Under the pieces are notes generated by a model. It was given only the letters and a program-made list of their open reading frames with translations, had not been told where the DNA came from and searched no databases. From NCBI GenBank assembly GCA_003211335.1, contig QCTA01000032.1, forward strand, positions 1-9,144: 9,144 bases of DNA, in the 5' to 3' direction. The translations under genes and the position numbers were made by a program. This stretch comes from Prochlorococcus sp. AG-670-O11 (GTDB taxonomy: Bacteria > Cyanobacteriota > Cyanobacteriia > PCC-6307 > Cyanobiaceae). Positions 989-9,144 of the stretch are shown one piece after another; position 1 is the first letter of the stretch, and every line of letters starts with the position of its first letter.

Positions 989-994
989 TCTTTG

Positions 995-1258
995 ATGAGA
1001 ATTAACTCGCAGTGGTTAAGCGTAATTTTTAGTATTGGAACTATGCTTATGGCTTTTTAAATTTTGGATAAGGAAGAAAGCATGAAAAAAAATAAATCAA
1101 TTTCTAGTGGAGAAAGGCAAGAACTAATTTTAAAAAAGATGAAAGCTAAAGTGATACAAGTAGGAAGTGGAGTTTCGAATGAAAATTATGATAATAAGGA
1201 ATTATATGAGTTTATCCATGTTGCTAATTGGTTTCAAGAGTTAACAGATGAGAATTAA
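995..1258 (+). pseudogene. Paralog of 5879-6142 with in-frame stop after its membrane helix
   Basis: From the ATG at 995 the frame reads MRINSQWLSVIFSIGT..., then a TAA at 1058-1060, then continues open to 1258. The paralog at 5879-6142 has exactly the same length (264 nt) with TTA (Leu) at that codon, so a single T-to-A change cut the gene. About 56 of 87 codons encode identical residues. The stop separates the N-terminal membrane helix from the soluble domain (SGERQELILKKMKAK core). An ATG at 1082 with AAGGA seven bases upstream could restart translation and give a 58-residue soluble product; the paralog has neither of these at that place. The 3' end overlaps the next gene by one base (TAATG), so passage of ribosomes through the second part may still matter. 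Family unknown. Confidence 0.75.
1070..1084 (+). promoter_or_regulatory. Shine-Dalgarno plus ATG allowing internal restart
   Basis: AAGGA at 1070-1074, a 7-nt spacer, then ATG at 1082. It lies just after the nonsense codon at 1058-1060. The intact paralog has AAAGA and ATA at the aligned positions, so this start signal is specific to the interrupted copy. Confidence 0.5.
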
Positions 1259-1509
1259 TGATGGAAGAGTTTACTTTGATTAATAAGGATAGAAGTAGGC
1301 TTAAAGTTTTTAAACCTTTTAAAGATCTATTGAAATCTAGTCAAACTATTAATGTGATTGAGATTGCTTATGGATGCGTTTATAAGATAAGTAGTAAAAA
1401 AGTTATGAAAGGAAGTAGGGTGGAAAGTATTGAAGATGCAAGAAAAGAATATAAGAAATTACTAGATCAAGGATGGAATAAAACAAGTATCTTTAAAAGC
1501 TACTTCTAA
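1258..1509 (+). CDS. Small DUF1651-like protein
   Basis: This 83-residue protein ends with the pattern ...SIEDARKEYKKLLDQGWNKT, which resembles the C-terminus of DUF1651, a picocyanobacterial family with a charged 'EA...L...GW' end. The family name is from memory and needs a profile search. No signal peptide or membrane helix is visible; it should be a small basic cytoplasmic protein. The ATG at 1258 overlaps the TAA of the preceding gene by one base, and a second ATG follows immediately at 1261. This junction implies translational coupling, so the gene depends on ribosomes reading the part of 995-1258 downstream of its nonsense codon. A hairpin 10 nt after its stop may end transcription. Confidence 0.7.
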   Translation: MMEEFTLINKDRSRLKVFKPFKDLLKSSQTINVIEIAYGCVYKISSKKVMKGSRVESIEDARKEYKKLLDQGWNKTSIFKSYF

Positions 1510-1519
1510 GCAAAAATAT

Positions 1520-1554
1520 GTATTCTTTCAGGGTTGTAGATAACCGAAAGATAC
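1520..1554 (+). terminator. Stem-loop downstream of 1258-1509, terminator-like
   Basis: The pairs GTAT/ATAC, CTTTC/GAAAG and GGTT/AACC nest into a 13-bp stem with one- and two-base bulges and a 6-nt loop. The stem starts 10 nt after the stop at 1509. It is not followed by a clean T run, so Rho-independent termination is uncertain. A second hairpin, AAAAAAG (1580-1586) with CTTTTTT (1595-1601), ends in T's and may act as the terminator proper. Confidence 0.45.
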
Positions 1555-1604
1555 TATTTGAATATAAGAAAAAGGTTATAAAAAAGGGGGTTGGCTTTTT
1601 TAAG

Positions 1605-1672
1605 TATGACTTTGATTTTTAAAGTCGATGAGAACAGGATTCAAACCTGTGACTTATTTCTCCGAAAGAATC
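1605..1672 (-). repeat. tRNA 3'-half-like repeat, copy 1
   Basis: On the minus strand this reads as the 3' half of a tRNA. It has an anticodon-like loop (TTTCGGA at 1667-1661), a variable region, a perfect 5-bp T stem (ACAGG/CCTGT) with the 7-nt loop TTTGAAT, and an acceptor-like end at 1625. There is no D arm or 5' acceptor strand, so it is not a working tRNA. It aligns without gaps with the copy at 7694-7762, both on the minus strand, sharing blocks such as TTCTTT, CAGGTT, GAATCCT and CGACT. A hairpin, GACTTT(7)AAAGTC, sits where a tRNA terminator would be. Short tRNA-derived repeats are known from Prochlorococcus islands and are typical remnants of integration at tRNA genes. Confidence 0.65.
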
Positions 1673-1690
1673 CTCAAAAATTTACTTATA

Positions 1691-1736
1691 GCAATGTGTT
1701 CAAATGTTATGAAGATTTTGGAGATTTAAACATTGC
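1691..1736. repeat. 7-bp inverted repeat beside tRNA-like copy 1
   Basis: GCAATGT (1691-1697) and ACATTGC (1730-1736) are complementary with a 32-nt spacer. They lie on the tRNA-5' side of copy 1, inside the 315-nt gap between 1509 and 1825. Apart from this repeat, the hairpins and the tRNA-like element, I see nothing in that gap. The short arms could be chance in AT-rich DNA. Confidence 0.25.
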
Positions 1737-1824
1737 ATAAATTTAGTAAATATATTTTTTTATATTGCTTGAAAGAAGGTTGGATTTATATTAATCTTTA
1801 ATTACTTTTGAATTGTTCATATAG

Positions 1825-2745
1825 ATGCTTGCACCTCATATTTCATCAAAATATCTCAGAAGTGTTGTTGCTCCCTATAAAATAGTTCATAAGGAATTGC
1901 GAAATATAAATATAACTAATAATTCTGATTTTAATACGAAGGAGGAAATAAGATTACAAGATATGTTTGGAGAAGAAATTAGGAAGAAACTTAAAAGAGC
2001 TGGGGTGGATAATAATTTTTTCAAAGGTAAAAGGGTTCTTGAAGTTTGTGCAGGTTCAGGATTTCTAACCTACCATCTTTTATCTAATTACAAGATAGAA
2101 CATCTTACTGTTAATGATATTTCAATTAATGAAATTAATTCTGCTAAGTTGCTCTTAGGTAAATCTTTCCCAGATGCAAATTTGGATTGGATTATTGGTG
2201 ATTTACACGAAATCTCTATTTCAAATAAATTTGACTTGATTATTGGCAATTCATTTCTACATCATTTCCATGATATGCCTAAAGTTTTAGAGAAGTTTCA
2301 TAGTCTTTTAAATAAAGGAGGTATTTTTATATCTATGCATGAACCAACTGTTAATTCTTTGGCAATAGTAGCGGTTAAGCCAATTGCGTACTTATTATCT
2401 TTAATTTACCCAAAAATGATTATTGAGTACTCAAGAAGACTTCATTCAAAAAATAAAAATAAAAATAAAAATTTAAAATTTTATACTGATATTTGGTTAT
2501 TGGAATCATCTCTTATTAAAAAAACAGCATTCAAATTAAAATATAAAGATGCAAAAACTATTTCTTGGGACCTGATCTTTAAAATAATTACAAATATATT
2601 TAAACTTCACATAACTCCTGAAAAAAGGACATTTAATAATAAAGAAAAAATCATAAGACGTTATGCTTTCAAAATTGATAGTATCCTTAATAAATTTTTA
2701 CCACCGCGATTTTTCGGTTCTTTAGCAATTATTCTTTATAGATAA
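1825..2745 (+). CDS. Class I SAM-dependent methyltransferase
   Basis: This 306-residue protein transfers a methyl group from S-adenosylmethionine to an unknown acceptor. It has a Rossmann-type motif I, VLEVCAGSG (71-79), an acidic residue ending strand 2 (TVNDIS, D98), IIGDLHEI (123-130), the motif IV region DLIIGNSFLHHF (137-148), and LLNKGGIFISMHEP (161-174). This is the layout of the Methyltransf_11/25 group, which methylates small molecules, quinones, lipids or sugars. The C-terminal third is basic and partly hydrophobic (about 182-200), so it may touch a membrane. A KNKNKN stretch near 208-216 is encoded by an AAAAAT microsatellite. It is followed after 51 nt by an SGNH-type surface protein and then an LptA-like protein, which favours an envelope glycan or lipid substrate. 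No clear Shine-Dalgarno precedes the ATG. Confidence 0.85.
   Translation: MLAPHISSKYLRSVVAPYKIVHKELRNINITNNSDFNTKEEIRLQDMFGEEIRKKLKRAGVDNNFFKGKRVLEVCAGSGFLTYHLLSNYKIEHLTVNDISINEINSAKLLLGKSFPDANLDWIIGDLHEISISNKFDLIIGNSFLHHFHDMPKVLEKFHSLLNKGGIFISMHEPTVNSLAIVAVKPIAYLLSLIYPKMIIEYSRRLHSKNKNKNKNLKFYTDIWLLESSLIKKTAFKLKYKDAKTISWDLIFKIITNIFKLHITPEKRTFNNKEKIIRRYAFKIDSILNKFLPPRFFGSLAIILYR
2449..2472 (+). repeat. AAAAAT hexamer microsatellite inside the methyltransferase
   Basis: Four perfect tandem AAAAAT units encode alternating Lys and Asn. A unit gain or loss changes the protein by two residues and keeps the frame. Confidence 0.7.
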
Positions 2746-2796
2746 ATTTATTATTTTTTGTTGTATGTATTAATTCCAATAAATGTCTTAAGTTAT

Positions 2797-4032
2797 ATGA
2801 ATTTTAAATTATTAACAATTCAATTATTTATAACAATAGTTTTTATATTTTTAGGATTGTTATTGATTATTGAAATCCCCCCACTTGCACTAATTTATTT
2901 TCAGTCAAAGATATTAAATAAAAACTTTAAGCAACGCTGTAATGATATTGTGCTTAATCAAATAAATTTCAAATATGCTTCATGTCCGAATAATGTATAT
3001 GTTAAACAAGGAGGCTTAGATTATCCAATAATTAAAGAAACTTTATCCTATACAGATGGTTTTGGTGGGAGAGTAAATAAGAATTCTTTAGGAAAAAATT
3101 TCGATAAAAATGAATTCAATCTTTTTCTAATTGGAGACTCATTTATACAGGCTGATGAACTTCCATATGAAAAAACAGTTTATGGAATTATTAATAATTC
3201 TACTAATAGTAAAAACTTCAAAGCATATGGTTTTGGTTTCTCATCATGGAATACGCAAGAATATTTATCTTCTATTAAGGCTATCAATGCAAATAATAGC
3301 TTATATGATGTTTTCCTTTTCCCAAATGATATAACTCCTAGTTATAGAAAATCTAGGTATGCCTCTTCGAGAAAAAAATTAATAGATTCAAAAAATAGTA
3401 CTAATAAAAATTTTTTTAAAAATAGATTAAGTAAATCAATTACATTTCAAAAATTAAAGGAATTATATTTAAATAAAAAATCAAAAATAATTACTGAAAA
3501 ATTTTGGTTGCAATACCCAAAAGAAAAAGATAAATGTCAATATTTAGAGAATAATAAGGATTTTTTATCTACAAGATTAGTAGATTATATTTATTATTCT
3601 TTACCATATAAATGCTGGACTGAAATTCATAGAGAATCGTATAGATTAGTCTTGGAAGATATTGAAAATATGAAGGAAGAGGCGTATAAAAGAAATTCAA
3701 AAATTCGATTTATTTACTTACCTCCAGGATTTAGCTTTCAAAATGAAAATTTCCCAGGAAGAACTCATAGATATTATGGGATTCCAAAAAATATCGAACT
3801 TAAATTATCTGGCTTAGTCCAAAAATTTAAGAATGATATCCCCACATCATTTGTTGATTTGGATAAAGCTATTAGTATAGAACTATCAAGATATAAGCAG
3901 AAAAAAGATTGCAAAACTGAAAAATGTAATAATTTATTTTATTACCCATATGATGGTCATCTCAATCATCAAGGACATAATTTCTTATATGAATACTTAT
4001 ATTTAAATTCAAGTTATAATTTTAAGTATTAA
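2797..4032 (+). CDS. Membrane-anchored SGNH/GDSL-type hydrolase or acyltransferase-like protein
   Basis: The likely start is the ATG at 2797 (411 residues); an upstream TTG at 2758 would add 13 residues but is a poor start. Residues about 5-33 form an N-terminal membrane helix, so the rest should face the periplasm. The first SGNH block is FLIGDSF with Ser115 as probable nucleophile. FNLFLIGDS opens a typical strand-turn, YGFGFSSWN (about 148-156) fits the Gly block, PNDITPS may supply the Asn block, and DGHLNHQGH (Asp386, His388) matches the C-terminal DxxH block. This arrangement resembles the AlgJ/AlgX and DltD-like SGNH proteins that acylate or deacylate surface polysaccharides. The substrate cannot be read from the sequence. 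It follows the methyltransferase in the same orientation and precedes an LptA-like gene, so it probably belongs to one envelope-modification cassette. Confidence 0.7.
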   Translation: MNFKLLTIQLFITIVFIFLGLLLIIEIPPLALIYFQSKILNKNFKQRCNDIVLNQINFKYASCPNNVYVKQGGLDYPIIKETLSYTDGFGGRVNKNSLGKNFDKNEFNLFLIGDSFIQADELPYEKTVYGIINNSTNSKNFKAYGFGFSSWNTQEYLSSIKAINANNSLYDVFLFPNDITPSYRKSRYASSRKKLIDSKNSTNKNFFKNRLSKSITFQKLKELYLNKKSKIITEKFWLQYPKEKDKCQYLENNKDFLSTRLVDYIYYSLPYKCWTEIHRESYRLVLEDIENMKEEAYKRNSKIRFIYLPPGFSFQNENFPGRTHRYYGIPKNIELKLSGLVQKFKNDIPTSFVDLDKAISIELSRYKQKKDCKTEKCNNLFYYPYDGHLNHQGHNFLYEYLYLNSSYNFKY

Positions 4033-4069
4033 TAATTTAAAAGAATAACAATTTCTGCTTAACTATTAC

Positions 4070-4075
4070 TATAAT
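4070..4075 (+). promoter_or_regulatory. Candidate -10 box for the LptA-like gene
   Basis: A perfect TATAAT lies 58 nt before the ATG at 4134. No matching -35 box is visible 17 nt upstream, which is common in Prochlorococcus. The 101-nt gap after the SGNH gene otherwise holds nothing recognised. Confidence 0.35.
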
Positions 4076-4133
4076 GTTTTTTCTCCACATGCATCTTTTG
4101 GAATGGGTGAGTAAACTATTGTTGAATAAATAA

Positions 4134-4502
4134 ATGAAACGCATACTACTTGCAATGGGACTATTTCTTTTAACTGAAATTTCATTTGCAAAAGAGAAAC
4201 TGAACTATACGGTTACATCTGATTCTCAAATACAAAATACTATGGGCAATTTTGAAGCTATTGGCAATGTTGTTATCAAAAGTACTAATAATAAATTTGA
4301 AGCCTACTCAAATAAGCTTACCTACGATAAAGATGCGAAAACTTTAAAATTAGTTGGAAATGTATTTGTTAAAAATTTAGAGTCCGAAGGTTTATCTATT
4401 CAAGAATCATATGGTGATGAATTGACTATATTCACTGATTCGGGGCTTTTTAAATTTAATTCTAAAAATAAAAATGGAGTAAAAACAAAACTCAAATTCT
4501 AA
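4134..4502 (+). CDS. Secreted OstA/LptA-like beta-jellyroll protein
   Basis: This 122-residue protein starts with a clear signal peptide, MKRILLAMGLFLLTEISFA, with likely cleavage after Ala19 (SFA-K). The mature part is a short repeat of beta strands with the OstA_N-type pattern: GNFEAIGNVVIKSTNNKF, AYSNKLTYDKDAKTLKLVGNVFV. In Gram-negative bacteria LptA carries lipopolysaccharide across the periplasm as a chain of such jellyrolls. Here it is about 100 mature residues, shorter than E. coli LptA, so it could be a bridging or accessory unit and not the housekeeping LptA. It follows the methyltransferase and SGNH genes, which supports a role in export or modification of a surface lipid or glycan. 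The assignment to the OstA fold is from the repeated strand pattern only. Confidence 0.7.
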   Translation: MKRILLAMGLFLLTEISFAKEKLNYTVTSDSQIQNTMGNFEAIGNVVIKSTNNKFEAYSNKLTYDKDAKTLKLVGNVFVKNLESEGLSIQESYGDELTIFTDSGLFKFNSKNKNGVKTKLKF

Positions 4503-4616
4503 ATTAAACAATATTACTCGCAAAGCTTATAAAAAAATTGAAAGTCGATTTAAGTAAGCGGTTAAATACTTTTTGTGTATATTTTGGGTGTTAATTTATA
4601 AAAACTTATACGAATT

Positions 4617-4676
4617 AATCATCCTCAAAAGCTATAGATTTTCATTTTTTAGCACTTATTCGTTTCTAGTGGTGAT
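4617..4676 (-). pseudogene. Decayed C-terminus of a paralog of 7894-8520
   Basis: On the minus strand the frame reads KRISAKK*KSIAFEDD* and aligns with the last 16 residues of the protein at 7894-8520 (KRISPEKWKSIAIEED*). The Trp codon has become TGA and a Cys codon upstream has become TAG. The DNA similarity continues past the stop on the low side: GGGTG, then AATTTATAAAAACTT at 4593-4607, matches 7873-7887. Only the tail survives; the rest of the gene is missing. The remainder of the 333-nt gap 4503-4835 has no gene I can support apart from the open frame at 4656-4826. Confidence 0.6.
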
Positions 4677-4826
4677 AAAAGGAGGTTCTTTAACCCATGT
4701 AGAAGTAACCTTTCCAGAATCATTAAAGATATATTTTAAAAAATTGGTCTTCATTATTTGTATTTTCAATAAACCTTTTAACCCTTGATATATTTGAATT
4801 AACCCACCAGTAGATCTAGCTATAAC
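4656..4826 (-). other. Open frame without a good start, possible gene remnant
   Basis: About 56 codons are open on the minus strand after a TAA at the upper end. The only ATG is at 4754, giving a 32-residue product that starts MKTNFLKYIF and ends VKEPPFITTRNE. It has protein-like composition (NDSGKVTSTW) for such AT-rich DNA but no Shine-Dalgarno. It overlaps the relic at 4617-4676 in another frame. It may be a truncated small gene or chance. Confidence 0.25.
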
Positions 4827-4835
4827 TTTTTAAGG

Positions 4836-5057
4836 TTAATATTCTACCTTCCAACGCGTTACGCAATAACTTAGAGGGTTATATCCATTGCAATTCCAAA
4901 ATTTAAATATTTTTAAGGCGAAATGGTGGAAACCAGAATCATTGAAAAATGCCCAACCAAAATAAATAGCAAATGCAGTTACAACAAGCGCAACATATTG
5001 TAGCCAATGCGTTCCAGACTTATCTACACCATTTTTGTCAAAATTAGAATTACTCAT
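4836..5057 (-). CDS. hli-linked small one-helix membrane protein
   Basis: This 73-residue paralog of the protein at 300-497 shares MSNSNFDKNGVD, GTHWLQY, AFAI and WAFF. One membrane helix is expected at about residues 20-40. The C-terminal tail (about 48-73) is longer and rich in Cys, Tyr and Trp, unlike the other copy. Its ATG follows the TAA of hli with no gap (TAAATG), so the two are surely one operon and probably translationally coupled. That linkage makes a role beside Hli at the thylakoid under high light or nutrient stress likely. No family with known function is recognised. Confidence 0.8.
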   Translation of the reverse strand: MSNSNFDKNGVDKSGTHWLQYVALVVTAFAIYFGWAFFNDSGFHHFALKIFKFWNCNGYNPLSYCVTRWKVEY

Positions 5058-5318
5058 TTAGAGGATTGGATATGCTATCCATCCAAATAAAGTGTAGTTA
5101 ATAATGACAGCCATAAAGCCTATCATTGCAAGTCTTCCATTTGTTCTTTCCGCAATAAACCAGTAGCTATTTGGCCATTCAAATTTAGTCTTATTAGGTA
5201 TTTGATTTCCAGAAAGTGTAGTTTCTTCACTAATTCTGTCTTGAAAAGAATCAACATTTTCGTTATTTAGAATTGGGTAATAGCTTTCGCTTCGAATATT
5301 GTCTTCTTTTTTAATCAT
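5058..5318 (-). CDS. hli: High-light-inducible protein (Hli/HLIP, CAB-like)
   Basis: This 86-residue thylakoid protein has one membrane helix. It carries the chlorophyll-binding signature ERTNGRLAMIGF at 57-68 (Glu57 and Asn60 as pigment ligands, Arg62 for the Glu-Arg ion pair of dimers). The helix runs on through MAVIINYTLFGWIAYPIL. Hli proteins bind chlorophyll and carotenoid, dissipate excess energy and protect photosystem II assembly and chlorophyll biosynthesis under stress. The roughly 50-residue polar N-terminal extension is longer than in the shortest Hli proteins; picocyanobacterial and phage Hlis vary here. It is directly followed by the MSNS-type gene at 4836-5057. Two TTTAC-type repeats upstream may be regulatory. 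Prochlorococcus genomes hold many hli copies, and those in islands are often the stress-induced, phage-exchanged type. Confidence 0.93.
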   Translation of the reverse strand: MIKKEDNIRSESYYPILNNENVDSFQDRISEETTLSGNQIPNKTKFEWPNSYWFIAERTNGRLAMIGFMAVIINYTLFGWIAYPIL

Positions 5319-5335
5319 TTTTTAGAAATTTGAAT

Positions 5336-5366
5336 TTTATACATTTTAAAAAGTAAAAAGTGTAAA
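5336..5366 (-). promoter_or_regulatory. Candidate hli promoter with TTTACA/TTTACT repeats
   Basis: On the minus strand TTTACA (5366-5361) and TTTACT (5357-5352) lie upstream of TATAAA (5341-5336), which is 17 nt before the ATG at 5318. The TTTAC pair resembles the HLR1 sites bound by RpaB at cyanobacterial high-light genes, but its period is 9 nt and not 10, and the spacing from TTTACA to TATAAA is 19 nt. Confidence 0.3.
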
Positions 5367-5465
5367 TAGGTTAAAATGCTTTTTTTAAATATTTGAACCT
5401 GAGGCTATTCGTAATCCACATAATAGAAGTCAATATTCCTATTATTTGGTAAATACAAGATATCA

Positions 5466-5627
5466 ATGAAATCTCTACTTACTAGCAAAAGATCAAAAGC
5501 AATATTAGGTATTGGGATAATGGCTATCTGTATAGGTGCAATATCAAAAAAGGTTATTAGCTACCCCGCGGGAGAATGCATGAAGGGTACTAAAGAGATG
5601 ACTTTTAATAAAGAAATAAGCATTTAA
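5466..5627 (+). CDS. Small one-helix membrane protein, 53 residues
   Basis: The ATG at 5466 opens a 53-residue frame ending in a double stop (TAATAA). Residues 1-10 are basic (MKSLLTSKRSK), 11-27 are hydrophobic (AILGIGIMAICIGAIS) and form one membrane or signal-anchor helix, and the tail carries YPAGECMKGTKE with one Cys. It is divergent from hli, 147 nt away, so the two could share a control region. No Shine-Dalgarno is seen. The family is not recognised. Base use matches the neighbours, except for a GC-rich patch (CCCCGCGGG) around Tyr-Pro-Ala-Gly. Confidence 0.5.
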   Translation: MKSLLTSKRSKAILGIGIMAICIGAISKKVISYPAGECMKGTKEMTFNKEISI

Positions 5628-5755
5628 TAAGAAGTCTGGATACTTATTACTTTCTAAAGTTTTTAAATTCTAAATAAGGTAAATAGGCTTTGAAATATCT
5701 AAGTCTTGTAGTTTATGGTTAAATTAAAATATTAATTTAGTCTTTGAAAGCTTTT

Positions 5756-5831
5756 AGGAGCATTAAGAATGCTAACTTTTTTGGAAACTATATTTAAACT
5801 TATAGAAATAAAACCCTTTTTTAATGCATAA
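5756..5831 (+). CDS. 20-codon leader ORF with strong Shine-Dalgarno
   Basis: AGGAG at 5756-5760, 8 nt spacing, then ATG at 5769; the ORF reads MLTFLETIFKLIEIKPFFNA and stops at 5829-5831. This is the best ribosome binding site in the region. Its stop overlaps the next ATG at 5824 (ATGCATAA), so it could feed ribosomes into the following ORFs as a leader peptide. It may also be the stub of a decayed gene. Confidence 0.35.
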
Positions 5832-5889
5832 GTTATTAATACCTTTTATAGCTGTATTTGCTTTACTTACGACTGTTAATGCAAATTAA
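5824..5889 (+). pseudogene. Signal-peptide stub of a secreted protein
   Basis: The frame MHKLLIPFIAVFALLTTVNAN is a near-ideal signal peptide: a basic start, a hydrophobic core, and a VNA cleavage site. It then stops right after the cleavage point. Small secreted proteins of Prochlorococcus often begin in this style. The mature protein is missing, so this is a truncated gene whose tail was replaced by the gene at 5879, which starts 11 nt before this stop in another frame. The stub could still be translated and could couple translation. Confidence 0.5.
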
Positions 5890-6142
5890 CTCGCAGGGGT
5901 GGAGCTTAATTTTTAGTATTGGAACTATATTGGTAACGTTTTTAATTTTGGATAAAGAAAAAAGAATAAAAAAATATAAATCAATGTCTAGCCAAGAAAG
6001 GCAAGAATTAATTTTAAAGAAAATGAAAGCTAAAGGAATAGAAGTTGGAAGTGGAGTTCCAAATAAAAATTATGACAGTGAAGAAGTATATGAGTTAATT
6101 CATATTGCTAAATGCTTTCCAGAGTTTAAGAGAAAGAGATAA
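5879..6142 (+). CDS. Small membrane-anchored protein, intact paralog of 995-1258
   Basis: The start is set to the ATG at 5879 (87 residues), because its first residues MQINSQ match MRINSQ of the copy at 995 and the two genes then have identical length. An upstream in-frame ATG at 5858 would add seven residues that are not shared. Residues about 8-24 (WSLIFSIGTILVTFLIL) form one membrane helix. The cytoplasmic part contains MSSQERQELILKKMKAK, then GIEVGSGVPNKNYDSEEVYELIHIAK, in a pattern close to a short helical domain. It has no recognised family or catalytic motif. The two upstream mini-ORFs overlap it in a chain. Its 3' end overlaps the convergent ORF at 6100-6282 by 43 nt. Confidence 0.7.
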   Translation: MQINSQGWSLIFSIGTILVTFLILDKEKRIKKYKSMSSQERQELILKKMKAKGIEVGSGVPNKNYDSEEVYELIHIAKCFPEFKRKR

Positions 6143-6282
6143 TTAATGAAAGAAACTACCATAGTAAATAACAATATAAATAAGCTATTAAATAATAAAA
6201 AAATATAAATAATCAAGCTAACAAAAGAACTTCCCACAATTAGGAAGACCATAAGAAGTGCAATTAACTTAGCTAATCCCAT
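6100..6282 (-). CDS. Possible 60-residue two-helix membrane protein
   Basis: The ATG at 6282 lies within the last codons of the gene at 6273-6659 (ATGGGATTAG, 10-nt overlap), a spacing typical of coupled genes. The product is almost wholly hydrophobic (MGLAKLIALLMVFLIVGS... to ...LFTMVVSFINYLFLL), enough for two membrane helices, and ends NSGKHLAI. A longer start at 6333 would add 17 polar residues wholly inside the upstream gene. Against it, AT-rich DNA yields hydrophobic frames by chance, and the 3' end overlaps the opposite-strand gene at 5879-6142 by 43 nt. No family recognised. Confidence 0.4.
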   Translation of the reverse strand: MGLAKLIALLMVFLIVGSSFVSLIIYIFLLFNSLFILLFTMVVSFINYLFLLNSGKHLAI

Positions 6283-6659
6283 AAAGATAAATCTGAATTT
6301 CCTGTTGATCTTTGCATCCAGTGAATTTTCCAATCATTATCCACTTTTTTAAAAATGGAAGTAACTGTTGGTAAGTCATCATTATGTGTACCTTTGTAAG
6401 TGAATTTTGAACCTAGAGTGAAAATGCACAAACAAACATTATTACTTAAAAACTCGAGGCGGTGTACTTTTGTTATTTCTGCCTTTTCTTGAACAACATC
6501 ACCAGAAATCATTTTTTCAAAGTCTTCTGCATTTATAGGATTACCACTTGGTCTTATGAATAGAAAATCAGAAGTTGAATTATGAATAAAAAAGGAAGCC
6601 ATTTTTTCTGGATTTGCAAATTCATTTAACAATGAAAATATTGTTTCTTTATCCGTCAT
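6273..6659 (-). CDS. NTF2/SnoaL-like (DUF4440-type) small protein
   Basis: This 128-residue cytoplasmic protein fits the cone-shaped alpha+beta NTF2-like fold: an N-terminal helix (ETIFSLLNEFANPEKMASFF), a mid segment (AEDFEKMISGDVV), then a run of strands ending VTSIFKKVDNDWKIHWMQRSTG, the usual 'W-K-I-x' closing strands of SnoaL/DUF4440 proteins. Members include enzymes, ligand binders and immunity proteins, so no activity can be assigned; no catalytic Asp-His pair is obvious. The ATG at 6659 is 31 nt from a 14-bp motif shared with the promoter region of the DUF3303-like gene. No Shine-Dalgarno precedes it, only an A/T run. Confidence 0.65.
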   Translation of the reverse strand: MTDKETIFSLLNEFANPEKMASFFIHNSTSDFLFIRPSGNPINAEDFEKMISGDVVQEKAEITKVHRLEFLSNNVCLCIFTLGSKFTYKGTHNDDLPTVTSIFKKVDNDWKIHWMQRSTGNSDLSLWD

Positions 6660-6689
6660 AAAAAAAAAGATAGTTATCGTAAACTAAAG

Positions 6690-6703
6690 TTTAGATCGAA
6701 TGT
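6690..6703 (-). promoter_or_regulatory. 14-bp shared upstream motif, copy 1
   Basis: Minus strand ACATTCGATCTAAA, extended to ATTTACATTCGATCTAAA. It is identical over 14 bp to the copy at 7635-7648, and each sits upstream of a minus-strand gene in the same orientation. It is likely a promoter or regulator site; the TTTACATT half resembles half of an HLR1 (RpaB) site. Confidence 0.5.
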
Positions 6704-6751
6704 AAATCAGCATAATTGTATGTATTCACTAGAAGATATTTAGAAACAAGA

Positions 6752-6866
6752 AACCTCTCCAGAAATTCCAACTACCAGAGAGGTTATTAAATTGACTCCT
6801 ACTATATAAAGTCAATTTATGTCTTGGAGTAAACGAAGAGTGTACTCATTGAGGTTTGGCCTCAAT
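6752..6866. other. Three consecutive hairpins between two minus-strand genes
   Basis: Stem 1: AACCTCTC (6752-6759) with GAGAGGTT (6778-6785). Stem 2: TAAATTGACT (6788-6797) with AGTCAATTTA (6810-6819), 10 bp. Stem 3: ATTGAGG (6848-6854) with CCTCAAT (6860-6866), loop TTTGG. All are perfect and lie in the 269-nt gap between the stop at 6929 and the start at 6659. None has a clean T run; stem 1 on the minus strand is followed by TCTTGTTTC and is the best terminator candidate. The run of stems would also suit a small RNA or a structured leader. No known cyanobacterial RNA (Yfr1 core, 6S) is recognised. Confidence 0.45.
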
Positions 6867-6928
6867 AAATTTATAGCAAGGAAATTAATAATTAACGATA
6901 GCCCTGAAAGTAGTGATCGTATTATTTG

Positions 6929-7234
6929 TTAATCACAACAACTGTCCTTTGTTAATGAAGCAGTCCAAGAGGATTCCTCCATTGTTGATAAGTCAACTCT
7001 ATGAGTTGACATCCAGTCACCATTTGCTTCCACAAACTTCTGAACATTACCTTCTGGCGCTTGATGAATAACAATAATTTTTTGAGGATCTTCCTTGCTT
7101 ACTCCTCTAAAAAGCGGCTTAATATCAAATTCTGAATGCCTTTTATCTGCTTCTTCACTGTCAAATATTGCAACCCATTCATCGAAAGTGCTTTCGATTT
7201 TAAAAGTAAAGACAGATGTTACAGAGCAAGACAT
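6929..7234 (-). CDS. DUF3764-like small cytoplasmic protein
   Basis: This 101-residue protein begins with a strand (SVTSVFTFKIEST), then FDEWVAIFDSEEADKRHSEFDIKPLFRGVSKEDP, then a strand IIVIHQAPEG and a helix VQKFVEANGDW. The pattern is that of a small ferredoxin-like alpha+beta domain, and the 'ADKRHSEFDIKPLFRG' region recalls DUF3764, a family common in marine picocyanobacteria. The name is from memory. Function unknown; no metal site is evident, though the C-terminus has Cys98 and Cys99. It follows the DUF3303-like gene by 50 nt on the same strand, which is another dimeric-barrel-type small protein. No Shine-Dalgarno is seen. Confidence 0.75.
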   Translation of the reverse strand: MSCSVTSVFTFKIESTFDEWVAIFDSEEADKRHSEFDIKPLFRGVSKEDPQKIIVIHQAPEGNVQKFVEANGDWMSTHRVDLSTMEESSWTASLTKDSCCD

Positions 7235-7266
7235 AAAAAAAGGAGCTAATTGCTTCTTATTTTAAA

Positions 7267-7278
7267 GTTGATGTCAAC
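7267..7278. repeat. Short palindrome between 7285 and 7234 genes
   Basis: GTTGA, TG, TCAAC: 5-bp arms, 6 nt after the stop of the DUF3303-like gene and 33 nt before the next ATG. On the minus strand it contains TTGACA. It is an operator or -35 candidate, or chance. Confidence 0.25.
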
Positions 7279-7284
7279 CACCTT

Positions 7285-7557
7285 TTATGAGTAGACTTTG
7301 GCAACAAGTGGACCAGCTTCTTCATCAGTAAATACAGGTGTGGTTTCCCAATTTAGGAATTCACCCCATTCTGCGGCATGTTGATATATCGCTTTTGGAT
7401 CATCAGTCTTTAAAACTATCCAACCCTCTAAAGAACCAGGGGCGTGATATCTTCCAATCATCTCAACTCCAGGATAATCTCCCCCTCCACCAAGGAATTT
7501 TTCTGCACCTTTTTGATGATATCCAGTCTTAAATGACCAATGCTGAACATAAAGCAT
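7285..7557 (-). CDS. DUF3303-like protein
   Basis: The start is taken at the ATG at 7557 (MLYVQHWSF, 90 residues), because family members begin MLYVQHW; an in-frame ATG at 7593 would add a lysine-rich 12-residue piece that is not typical. The protein has the DUF3303 pattern: a strand MLYVQHWSFK, GYHQKGAEKFLGGGGDYPGVEMIGRYHAPGSLEGWIVLKTDDPKAIYQHAAEWGEFLNWETTPVFTDEEAG. This is a small dimeric alpha/beta-barrel-like fold of unknown function, widespread in cyanobacteria. No signal peptide or helix for membranes. It leads a minus-strand run into the DUF3764-like gene and carries a shared 14-bp motif 78 nt upstream of its ATG. Confidence 0.85.
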   Translation of the reverse strand: MLYVQHWSFKTGYHQKGAEKFLGGGGDYPGVEMIGRYHAPGSLEGWIVLKTDDPKAIYQHAAEWGEFLNWETTPVFTDEEAGPLVAKVYS

Positions 7558-7634
7558 TTTTTTAATTTTTATTGGCTTTTTATTATATAGCAAGAAAAAT
7601 AATTCATGAAAATAAATATTGTTTGTTTCCTTTT

Positions 7635-7648
7635 TTTAGATCGAATGT
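7635..7648 (-). promoter_or_regulatory. 14-bp shared upstream motif, copy 2
   Basis: Minus strand ACATTCGATCTAAA, extended to ATTGACATTCGATCTAAA, so that a TTGACA -35-like hexamer is embedded. It lies upstream of the DUF3303-like gene and matches copy 1 at 6690-6703. Confidence 0.5.
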
Positions 7649-7680
7649 CAATATATTTTTCCAATAAAAAAGAGAGCTTG

Positions 7681-7715
7681 GGAAAAACTCTAGTGTGACT
7701 TGGTTTTTATAGAGT
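7681..7715 (-). terminator. Hairpin with T run after tRNA-like copy 2
   Basis: On the minus strand ACTCTA (7715-7710), a 17-nt loop, TAGAGT (7692-7687), then TTTTT (7686-7682). It directly follows the tRNA-like 3' end, as a native tRNA terminator would, so the repeat seems to carry tRNA 3' half plus terminator. Confidence 0.5.
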
Positions 7716-7762
7716 CGGGGCAAAAGGATTCGAACCTGGGACCTAGTGCTCCCAAAGAACCC
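7694..7762 (-). repeat. tRNA-Pro-like 3'-half repeat, copy 2 (candidate att site)
   Basis: On the minus strand the order is: an anticodon-stem-like GGTTC/GCACT, loop TTTGGGA whose central TGG would read Pro codons, a variable region, T arm CAGG-TTCGAAT-CCTT, and an acceptor end TGCCCCGA at 7715. There is no D arm or 5' acceptor half, and two T-stem pairs are broken, so it is not a working tRNA. It aligns gap-free with copy 1 at 1605-1672 in the same orientation about 6.1 kb away. Reads like the footprint left by site-specific integration at a tRNA-Pro gene. Confidence 0.65.
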
Positions 7763-7823
7763 GGTAAAACAATGCTATAACTGAGACTTATGTTGCTTAT
7801 AGTACTTTCTGGGATTTATACAT

Positions 7824-7871
7824 GGACTAATTCGGACTAGATAACACAGTCTTGGGTGCATTTTTGGTGCA
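7824..7871. repeat. Two helically phased direct-repeat pairs beside the tRNA-like copy
   Basis: GGACTA at 7824 and 7834 (10-bp period) and GGTGCA at 7855 and 7866 (11-bp period). Repeats of this kind flank tRNA attachment sites as arm sites for tyrosine integrases. No integrase gene is in the window. The rest of the 300-nt gap 7594-7893 holds copy 2, its hairpin and the shared motif. Confidence 0.4.
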
Positions 7872-7893
7872 AATTTATAAAAACTTTTTCAAA

Positions 7894-8520
7894 TTAATCT
7901 TCCTCAATAGCGATTGATTTCCATTTTTCAGGACTTATTCTTTTACAACCTGGGTATCCAAATTCAGGGCAATTAGGCCAATCTGGGTCCCAAGAGTACA
8001 TTGAGTTGAATTTCTTGTAAAAGTCTGGCTCTTTTTGCAGAAGTTCTAATTTGGTTTCAACTTCCAATTCTTGACCATAGGGCAAAACTATCTCTTTATA
8101 TTTTTCTAAACAATCCTCTTTTTTTATGGTTTCACTCATTTTCTCAGACTTATAGGGTTTCCAGTCAAATTTGATGTAATTTGGGACTACATTTCTCATA
8201 CGTTTCATAAGTAATTTTTGATTTTTTAGATTTTCTTTAACTGCCTCTGCAATAAATTCTTCAGTACATATTTCTTTTGCTCTTTCTATTGTAAAAATTG
8301 CTAATTTATTCCTAAATTCGTATCTATATTTTTGTGAGTTTTCAAAATCTAATTTAATCTCATTTTTTTCTTTAGATATGTTTTCGTCTTTTAATTGTTT
8401 ATTGGGGATAGTTTGAATTTGGGTAATTTTTCTAATGTATTTATTATTAAGGAAATATGGAGTAATTAGTACAAGAAATATAAGCCATAAAGCTAAGTTA
8501 GCAGATTTATTTAAATTCAT
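7894..8520 (-). CDS. Membrane-anchored protein of unknown function
   Basis: This 208-residue protein has one N-terminal hydrophobic segment (about 9-25, ALWLIFLVLITPYFL) that should anchor it or serve as an uncleaved signal. A charged, likely helical region follows (30-75), then RNKLAIFTIERAKEICTEEFIAEAVKENLKNQKLLMKRMRN, and a Trp/Pro/Cys-rich C-terminus (WDPDWPNCPEFGYPGCKRISPEKW). The paired Cys near the end could form a disulfide if exported. No family is recognised. Its ATG is 9 nt after the stop of the gene at 8530, so the pair is an operon. A decayed copy of its tail at 4617-4676 shows it belongs to a duplicated island family. Confidence 0.65.
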   Translation of the reverse strand: MNLNKSANLALWLIFLVLITPYFLNNKYIRKITQIQTIPNKQLKDENISKEKNEIKLDFENSQKYRYEFRNKLAIFTIERAKEICTEEFIAEAVKENLKNQKLLMKRMRNVVPNYIKFDWKPYKSEKMSETIKKEDCLEKYKEIVLPYGQELEVETKLELLQKEPDFYKKFNSMYSWDPDWPNCPEFGYPGCKRISPEKWKSIAIEED

Positions 8521-8529
8521 TGATGCAGA

Positions 8530-9144
8530 TTAAAAACCTAAATCTTCGATTTTTACATTTGGAGCTGGTTTCCAATTGGCATAAACTTTCTTCCAAGATG
8601 ACACTGTTTCTTTACCGATTTCACTTAAATGAGCGCTACCCGTGCCCTCAGTAGAGAATCTTATATAACTATTCTTACTATCATCTGACTTTAATAATGC
8701 TGCAGCAATATCTTTGGTGACCTTAAAGACTCCGTTACATCCCTTTACTACAAGGAAATTATCACCATCTGGGATCCAAAGAATATTTGCTTCAAACGGA
8801 TACATGCTATAGAAAGTAGTGAAACCAACGCTATGACTAAATACCCAATAACCGCCTAATCTAATAGAGTCTCGTGCCCAAACTGAAGAAACTTTTGACC
8901 CCCCCGGGACAAAGTTTTGATCCCTTACAGCAACCGACTCACCTGTTACGGGGTCGTTATAAGTTAAAGCCTCAGAGAAAGGGAATTTTTTCCCTGGCCT
9001 TCTAAAATCTGAAGTTAGTTGATAATCCTTTAAATCTGAATAACCTGCTGGAAGTATCCCTTTTGAAATCCTTGTAACACTTGAATTGAGATTGTCAGCA
9101 CAAAACATGTTATTTTTGGCTGAATCAGAATCTAAAGTTTTTGA
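8530..9144 (-). CDS. Unrecognised protein, 5' end beyond the window
   Basis: The frame is open from the window edge (9144) to a TAA at 8530-8532. An ATG at 9108 would give 192 residues, but the 12 codons upstream of it are also open with no stop, so the true start probably lies outside. The protein has no membrane helix in the visible part. It contains many Gly, Ser, Trp and aromatic residues in a beta-rich pattern (VWARDSIRLGGYWVFSHSVGFTTFYSMYPF region, VVKGCNGVFKVTKD), and ends WKPAPNVKIEDLGF. No family is recognised. It is the upstream partner of 7894-8520. A GC-rich spot (CCCCCCGGG at 8899-8907) encodes the Pro-Gly-Gly turn. Confidence 0.65.
   Translation of the reverse strand, partial: SKTLDSDSAKNNMFCADNLNSSVTRISKGILPAGYSDLKDYQLTSDFRRPGKKFPFSEALTYNDPVTGESVAVRDQNFVPGGSKVSSVWARDSIRLGGYWVFSHSVGFTTFYSMYPFEANILWIPDGDNFLVVKGCNGVFKVTKDIAAALLKSDDSKNSYIRFSTEGTGSAHLSEIGKETVSSWKKVYANWKPAPNVKIEDLGF

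What the first reader, a model, noticed from the sequence alone, without database searches (positions are those of the whole stretch)
1605..7871. Two tRNA 3'-half-like repeats in the same orientation bracket about 6.1 kb of island cargo
The minus-strand sequences ending at 1625 and 7715 align gap-free over more than 45 nt (TTCTTT, GGAG, CAGGTT, GAATCCT, CGACT blocks). Each looks like an anticodon loop, T arm and acceptor end without a 5' half, followed by a hairpin. Between them lie a methyltransferase, SGNH protein, LptA-like protein, an hli operon and several small genes. This is the geometry of a non-autonomous, tRNA-targeted integrative element (tycheposon-like) or of serial insertions at a tRNA-Pro gene. 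No integrase is present, so mobility is inferred.
Basis: partly seen in the sequence, partly recalled or inferred. Interest (0 to 1): 0.7.

Follow-up and report, generated by a model that had tools for sequence, protein, structure and literature searches.

The report
Decayed tRNA-Pro insertion stack in Prochlorococcus
The two tRNA-like repeats are worn landing sites in a pile of small mobile DNA cassettes that build up behind one tRNA gene in Prochlorococcus; in related genomes most of these cassettes lack their own insertion enzyme, and many carry the same short sequence key at both ends.

Summary
Copy B (core 7761-7714, minus) matches the 3' 48 nt of Prochlorococcus tRNA-Pro(TGG) at 44/48, copy A (1672-1625, minus) at 32/48; a core profile made without the window still finds both (E 4e-16, 3.6e-7). 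In 45 stretches of 43 related genomes the core recurs downstream of the intact tRNA-Pro: 247 displaced copies in its orientation, 6 reversed, none in a control. Degeneracy rises with distance. Units between cores are mobile: units of one cluster (75-100% identical) have no matching outer flank in 96 of 98 pairs. Many ends carry tandem 8-12 bp units, phased 11 or 12 bp, at fixed distances from the core. The unit tends to match at both ends of one element (101 of 241; mispaired 24 of 722), rarely across a core in hosts (11 of 247), but across the core in 13 of 17 viral contigs (attP form). 224 of 245 units lack the recombinase family found in 21. In the window, copy B has right-arm units at exactly -109 and -98; copy A has the gene position of known left ends. 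A decayed third end lies at 4571-4592. Serial insertion is supported; one bracketed 6.1 kb element is not. Closest kinds: tycheposons, CIME accretion, integrase-less integron arrays.

The parts
7714..7761 (-). Copy B: displaced attachment core, 3' 48 nt of tRNA-Pro(TGG), 4 mismatches
7850..7870 (-). Right-arm unit pair GCACCAAAAA / GCACCCAAGA at exactly -109 and -98 from core B: right end of a class C element lying to the right (predicted tRNA side)
7655..7713 (-). Left arm after core B, with terminator-like hairpin; start of the next older element; no phased units found
1625..1672 (-). Copy A: older displaced core, 16 mismatches
1545..1624 (-). Left arm after core A, terminator-like; no phased units found
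1258..1509 (+). Small gene 116 nt after core A; 11 of 24 family members in other stacks lie 97-185 nt after a core on the same strand. A relative matches DUF1651 below its cut-off
4571..4592 (-). Decayed right-arm unit pair (AACACCCAAAA / TATACACAAAA, 11 bp phase) of a third element; no core found behind it
4573..4665 (-). Relic of the 3' end of a paralogue of the 208-aa gene plus that right arm, 82% to 7852-7944
7894..8520 (-). 208-aa gene, last gene of the element that ends at core B; in 1 of 266 genomes, there also near a core
8530..9144 (-). Second gene of that element (open at the window edge); 90% aa match in a Prochlorococcus MAG that has the same gene pair and a core
6273..7557 (-). 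DUF3303, DUF3764 and DUF3804 genes after core B
1825..4502 (+). Methyltransferase, SGNH-like and LptA-like genes between the decayed end and copy A

Best explanation
The window is an old, distal stretch of an insertion stack at tRNA-Pro(TGG). Tyrosine recombinases insert circular elements at the 3' half of the intact tRNA gene. Each insertion restores the tRNA and pushes the older core, now without a 5' half, downstream together with its cargo. Repeated insertion yields a one-way array, youngest beside the tRNA. The intact tRNA should lie off the right end of the window. Core B is the junction between a younger element on its right (208-aa gene and its neighbour) and an older one on its left. 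Core A is an older junction further along. At least one more junction between them seems to have lost its core. Shown by sequence: core identity, orientation, tandem order, core-to-core units at different ranks, matched end units in many elements, attP-like forms in viral contigs, recombinase genes at the right end of 21 of 245 units. Inferred: the circular intermediate, that the phased end units are arm-type recombinase sites, and that recombinase-less units move in trans with recombinases of elements bearing the same unit.
For: Core profile E-values and tRNA assignment. In 45 host stretches from 43 genomes: 289 cores in the orientation of the tRNA (42 of them in the intact tRNA itself, 247 displaced), 6 reversed, all in two genomes, 0 in the reversed-sequence control and none upstream of the tRNA in the DNA held (at most about 1 kb there in 34 of 43 stretches). 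Mismatches rise with rank in 26 of 29 stacks, mean rho 0.55, 0 of 2000 permutations; 13 of 14 stacks that share no unit cluster; proximal half 2.03, distal half 5.37 mismatches. Same-cluster pairs: 96 of 98 without an outer-flank alignment of 300 nt. Own arms share an ungapped match scoring 12 or more in 57.5% of 226 intervals (window's included), mispaired 7.4%; matching phased units 101 of 241 versus 24 of 722. Across the core: 11 of 247 in hosts, 13 of 17 in viral contigs. Recombinase 70-237 nt from the right end, minus strand, in all 21 units that have it, catalytic residues invariant, PHROG integrase E down to 2e-14. Class C right-end profile hits copy B at E 1e-39.
Against: No whole genome is held for the window, so the intact tRNA to the right is predicted, not seen. 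Copy A is only 32/48. The order is not strict: 4 of 29 stacks have a near-perfect core distal to a degenerate one, so insertion into displaced cores or rearrangement also happens. 140 of 241 intervals show no matching phased unit under the strict rule, and two of seven within-class key tests were not significant (N=6 and N=7). The 13 viral matches hold only 7 different keys; 7 of them share one. One recombinase representative had no Pfam match at E<=0.01 and PF00589 matches in stacks are weak. The methyltransferase, SGNH-like, LptA-like and 208-aa genes have no relative in the sampled stacks, and the three SGNH-like relatives elsewhere were not examined for cores. The stretches were chosen for contig length, not at random.
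Confidence: 0.87

Rival explanations
1. A single 6.1 kb non-autonomous element lies between copies B and A, as in the first reader's first option.
For: Two directly repeated cores with a plausible unit length (other intervals range 143-23,544 nt); a terminator-type left arm after B.
Against: No shared arm unit between its two ends; a decayed right end of another element inside at 4571-4592; block duplications in the window suggest several insertions.
Confidence: 0.1
2. The repeats spread by copying of a tRNA fragment (retro-copying, gene conversion or segmental duplication) without site-specific recombination.
For: Block duplications do exist in the window (D1, D2, D3).
Against: Sharp core-to-core units with different neighbours, matched phased units at both ends, recombinase genes adjoining the core, attP-like forms in viral contigs.
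Confidence: 0.03
3. The end units are not recombinase sites but replication iterons or repressor boxes of the elements; stack formation is as described.
For: Tandem short repeats also serve as iterons (general knowledge); the correlation of unit similarity with the recombinase N-terminal region is weak (partial rho 0.15, permutation 0.0055; remaining part 0.11, 0.057).
Against: They occur at both ends at class-fixed distances from the core; recombinase-bearing members exist for the main geometry classes.
Confidence: 0.2

Closest known systems
Tycheposons (Hackl et al. 2023 Cell; not held, known here through passages of PMC10872708, PMC10187409 and PMC11389934, and recall)
   Same: Prochlorococcus, tRNA target, own group of tyrosine recombinases, cargo; counted among phage satellites in PMC11389934
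   Different: The window has no recombinase; most stack units elsewhere are shorter than the 4-200 kb given in PMC10872708 and lack the recombinase; phased end keys are not mentioned in the passages I saw
CIMEs and tandem accretion of ICE/IME (PMC5704250, passages)
   Same: Integrase-less units that keep their attachment sites, tandem at a tRNA 3' end
   Different: Not merely decayed: some recombinase-less units 94-99.9% identical recur at different ranks in different species; many units with one core and diverse end keys; conjugation genes were not looked for
Integron cassette arrays without integrase (CALIN; PMC11389934, passages)
   Same: Works like it: one-way arrays of short gene cassettes without integrase, possibly mobilised in trans
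   Different: The site is a tRNA 3' half, not shown to be attC; the order comes from repeated insertion at the tRNA; kinship of the recombinases with integron integrases was not tested
Additive flexible genomic islands with tRNA-end repeats (PMC10872708; pseudo-tRNA-Met copies in PMC2784084; passages)
   Same: Recurring tRNA 3' pieces in variable islands
   Different: No unit borders, end keys or age gradient in the passages seen
PRE1 repeat of Prochlorococcus MED4 (Coleman et al. 2006; recalled, not read)
   Same: As recalled, a 48 bp island repeat, possibly this core
   Different: Could not be checked; two searches found no paper

Membership tests
Tycheposon | Tyrosine recombinase encoded in the element | tested here: not met
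   No recombinase match in the window; present in 21 of 245 stack intervals elsewhere. The element right of core B is only partly in the window, so this holds for the DNA seen
Tycheposon | Integration at a tRNA gene, bordered by its 3' end | tested here: met
   Cores A and B are tRNA-Pro(TGG) 3' pieces
Tycheposon | Length 4-200 kb (PMC10872708) | tested here: inconclusive
   No complete element is identified in the window; intervals of 500 nt or more elsewhere have median 2.1 kb
Tycheposon | Recombinase belongs to the published tycheposon subfamily | not testable with these tools
   Reference sequences and Hackl et al. not held
CIME | attL and attR kept, integration and transfer genes lost | tested here: inconclusive
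   Cores kept and no recombinase match; left and right end of one and the same element were not both recognised in the window; transfer genes not searched for
Integron / CALIN | attC sites | not tested
   Sites are tRNA 3' halves; no attC scan was run
Integron | Integron integrase | tested here: inconclusive
   No match to the stack recombinase family in the window; no integron-integrase model was searched on its own

The most novel reading that the evidence does not exclude
Prochlorococcus runs an integron-like cassette system built on a tRNA: tRNA-Pro is the entry site, a large set of short gene cassettes share one 48 bp core, and a phased 8-12 bp key at both ends of a cassette names the recombinase that can move it, supplied in trans by a separate phage, satellite or tycheposon with the same key. 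The stack is a roughly time-ordered record of past insertions.
Probability: 0.5. Interest if true: 0.82.

Novelty: new variant of a known kind. Interest (0 to 1): 0.6.

Why it matters
Prochlorococcus islands hold nutrient and stress genes, and it is not obvious how small genes arrive without a mobility enzyme. A readable core and end key give exact unit borders, predict which recombinase moves which cassette, and give a rough order of arrival. For example, 35 of 120 recombinase-less intervals (under 6 kb, phased units in both arms under the looser rule) carry exactly a unit found in the right arm of one of 29 recombinase-bearing elements, against 20 of 2400 letter-shuffled units; the shuffle does not keep class-wide consensus letters, so part of the excess may be class likeness. 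Recurrent recombinase-less units include pstS-like and arsR/GAPDH/MFS/pstS-like cargo (sequences; gene names recalled, not searched).

Tried and rejected
A snoRNA-like Rfam match over copy A (E 0.64, below its cut-off) was rejected as chance. RNA folding of either copy is not clearly better than shuffles (z -1.3 to 0.7). A box ATTKACATTCGATCTAAA shared by 7635-7652 and 6690-6707 was first taken for an element arm, then rejected because both copies lie upstream of start codons, like a shared promoter. Recombinase N-terminal region versus key gave only a weak correlation. No match of the window in the phage collection at near identity. Copy A as a piece of another tRNA was tested against 37 tRNAs of one genome and rejected. 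Literature: nine searches. Six papers were seen as passages only (PMC10872708, PMC12416821, PMC2784084, PMC10187409, PMC11389934, PMC5704250), all others as search listings. Nothing in the titles, abstract starts and passages I saw mentions keyed ends at tRNA-Pro, but Hackl et al. 2023 and Eppley et al. 2022 are not held, so I cannot say this is absent from print.
Full report
What is there. The two repeats are real. Minus-strand 1680-1603 and 7769-7692 align without gaps at 53/78, blastn E 5e-7. There is no intact tRNA in the window. Compared with 37 tRNAs of one related genome, copy B is the tRNA-Pro(TGG) 3' half at 44/48 and copy A the same at 32/48, with the next tRNAs behind (31/48 and 27/47). 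A profile from 289 cores of other genomes, without the window, finds B at 4e-16 and A at 3.6e-7; the next window match is E 2.4.

The genus-wide setting. The query window:7640-9144 matches 256 of 266 genomes of the genus at E<=0.001, weak matches included; the listed matches, a capped list, lie nearly all around copy B. None of the 29 loci L008-L036, about 2-3 kb each, has an intact tRNA. I then took stretches of contigs from 43 genomes, chosen for contig length, not at random. ARAGORN finds an intact tRNA-Pro(TGG) in one stretch of each of the first nine genomes, plus one degenerate second call in G018. The tRNA 5' part is in 43 of the 45 stretches; the other two are second islands of two genomes. 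I turned each stretch so that the tRNA (or, in those two, the cores) reads forward. Cores with at most 16 mismatches: 289 forward, 42 of them in the intact tRNA and 247 displaced, and 6 reversed, in G008 (4) and G148 (2). The reversed-sequence control gave none, and none lies upstream of the tRNA, but 34 of 43 stretches hold only about 1 kb there. The 27 stacks with at least 30 kb held have a median of 6 displaced cores, range 0-14.

Order. Core mismatches rise with rank from the tRNA in 26 of 29 stacks with more than three displaced cores, mean rho 0.55, 0 of 2000 permutations; among 14 stacks that share no unit cluster, 13 are positive. Four of 29 break the order with a near-perfect core behind a degenerate one. 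In the window B (4 mismatches) and A (16) fit the trend if the tRNA lies to the right, which the orientation also predicts.

Units. Of 245 core-to-core intervals, 57 fall in 18 clusters and 188 are unique. Cluster identities run from 75% to 100%; several clusters without the recombinase reach 94-99.9% between genomes of different species. In 98 same-cluster pairs, 96 have no outer-flank alignment of 300 nt or more in the 1 kb beyond the cores; a few have shorter ones. One 16,323-nt unit occurs twice, identical, in one genome. So the core marks unit borders.

End keys. Many intervals end in tandem pairs of 8-12 bp units, phased 11 or 12 bp, at fixed distances from the core. The unit tends to be the same at both ends: matching phased units in 101 of 241 intervals versus 24 of 722 mispaired; within geometry classes 5 of 7 tests are significant (N=24, 33, 16, 27 and 9), two small ones (N=6, 7) are not. 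A looser rule gives 152 of 241 versus 61 of 482. Across a core in hosts only 11 of 247 match, all with scores 7-8 of 9. Of the 20 IMG/VR loci, two have the tRNA 5' half and one too short a flank; 13 of the other 17 carry the same key on both sides (7 different keys, one of them in 7 loci), 4 do not. That is what an uninserted attP should look like.

Recombinases. A divergent tyrosine recombinase family is in 21 of 245 intervals, always on the minus strand 70-237 nt from the right end; intervals with it have median 9.1 kb, those without 1.9 kb, and only 2 of 205 under 5 kb have it. A profile search of all six frames finds the same 21 at E 1e-20, 22 at 1e-5 and 23 at 1e-3, so two further remnants are possible. 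Recombinases of other families were not excluded. Catalytic residues are invariant; PHROGs calls four of four tested members integrase, E 2e-14 to 1e-5; PDB search finds a XerC-like recombinase at 7e-8; but a Pfam scan of one member gave no hit. A capsid family has members in six intervals (representative E 1e-44). Recombinase-bearing members exist for the main geometry classes. Of 120 recombinase-less intervals with phased ends, 35 carry exactly a unit seen in the right arm of one of 29 recombinase-bearing elements; shuffled units 20 of 2400. The recombinase N-terminal region follows the key only weakly.

The window read in this light. Copy B is the right end of a class C element: GCACC at exactly -109 and -98, right-end profile E 1e-39. 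A recombinase-bearing element with the unit CGCACCCAAA at -110 is L142. The genes next to it are the 208-aa gene and the gene at 8530-9144; the same pair with a core nearby occurs in one MAG. After B come a terminator-like left arm and the DUF3303, DUF3764 and DUF3804 genes, families that recur in other stacks. At 4571-4592 a decayed right arm of the same type follows a relic of a 208-aa paralogue; no core is found behind it. Then the LptA-like, SGNH-like and methyltransferase genes, then core A, then a small gene 116 nt away, on the strand and near the place (97-185 nt) where 11 of 24 relatives sit. On this reading the window holds pieces of at least four insertions. The B-to-A interval has no matching ends.

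Verdict. The finding is correct in its serial-insertion form and belongs to a known kind. What may be new is the keyed, mostly recombinase-less cassette system seen when the genus is read as a whole. The main papers on tycheposons were not readable here, so novelty is stated with that limit.

Noticed in passing
window 6766-6863: Yfr13 RNA on the minus strand, E 6e-19, between the DUF3764 and DUF3804 genes.
   Followed up: no
window 992-1242 / 5876-6126, 406-497 / 4966-5057: Paralogous blocks in the same order and direction, 82% and 79% identical, one after each core.
   Followed up: partly
window 7635-7652 and 6690-6707: Shared box ATTKACATTCGATCTAAA upstream of the DUF3303 and DUF3804 genes, promoter-like.
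   Followed up: partly
for example G005:C3:29496-30818 and C3:3324-3366: Recombinases with a 468-aa open frame about 215 nt from the 5' end of the intact tRNA-Pro in about ten listed genomes, with truncated tRNAs ending GGGAGCAT further upstream in some: a second class that may use the 5' part of the same tRNA (by coordinates).
   Followed up: no
G045 stretches L052-L055: A 16,323-nt recombinase-bearing element, identical at two sites of one genome; no tRNA was found in the 30 kb stretch around the second.
   Followed up: no
L118, L119, L120, L125, L131-L134: IMG/VR contigs of 9-40 kb with the attP-like form of this core and the key GTAATCTAG or GTATCCTAG: candidate temperate phages or satellites aimed at tRNA-Pro; hosts not checked.
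   Followed up: partly
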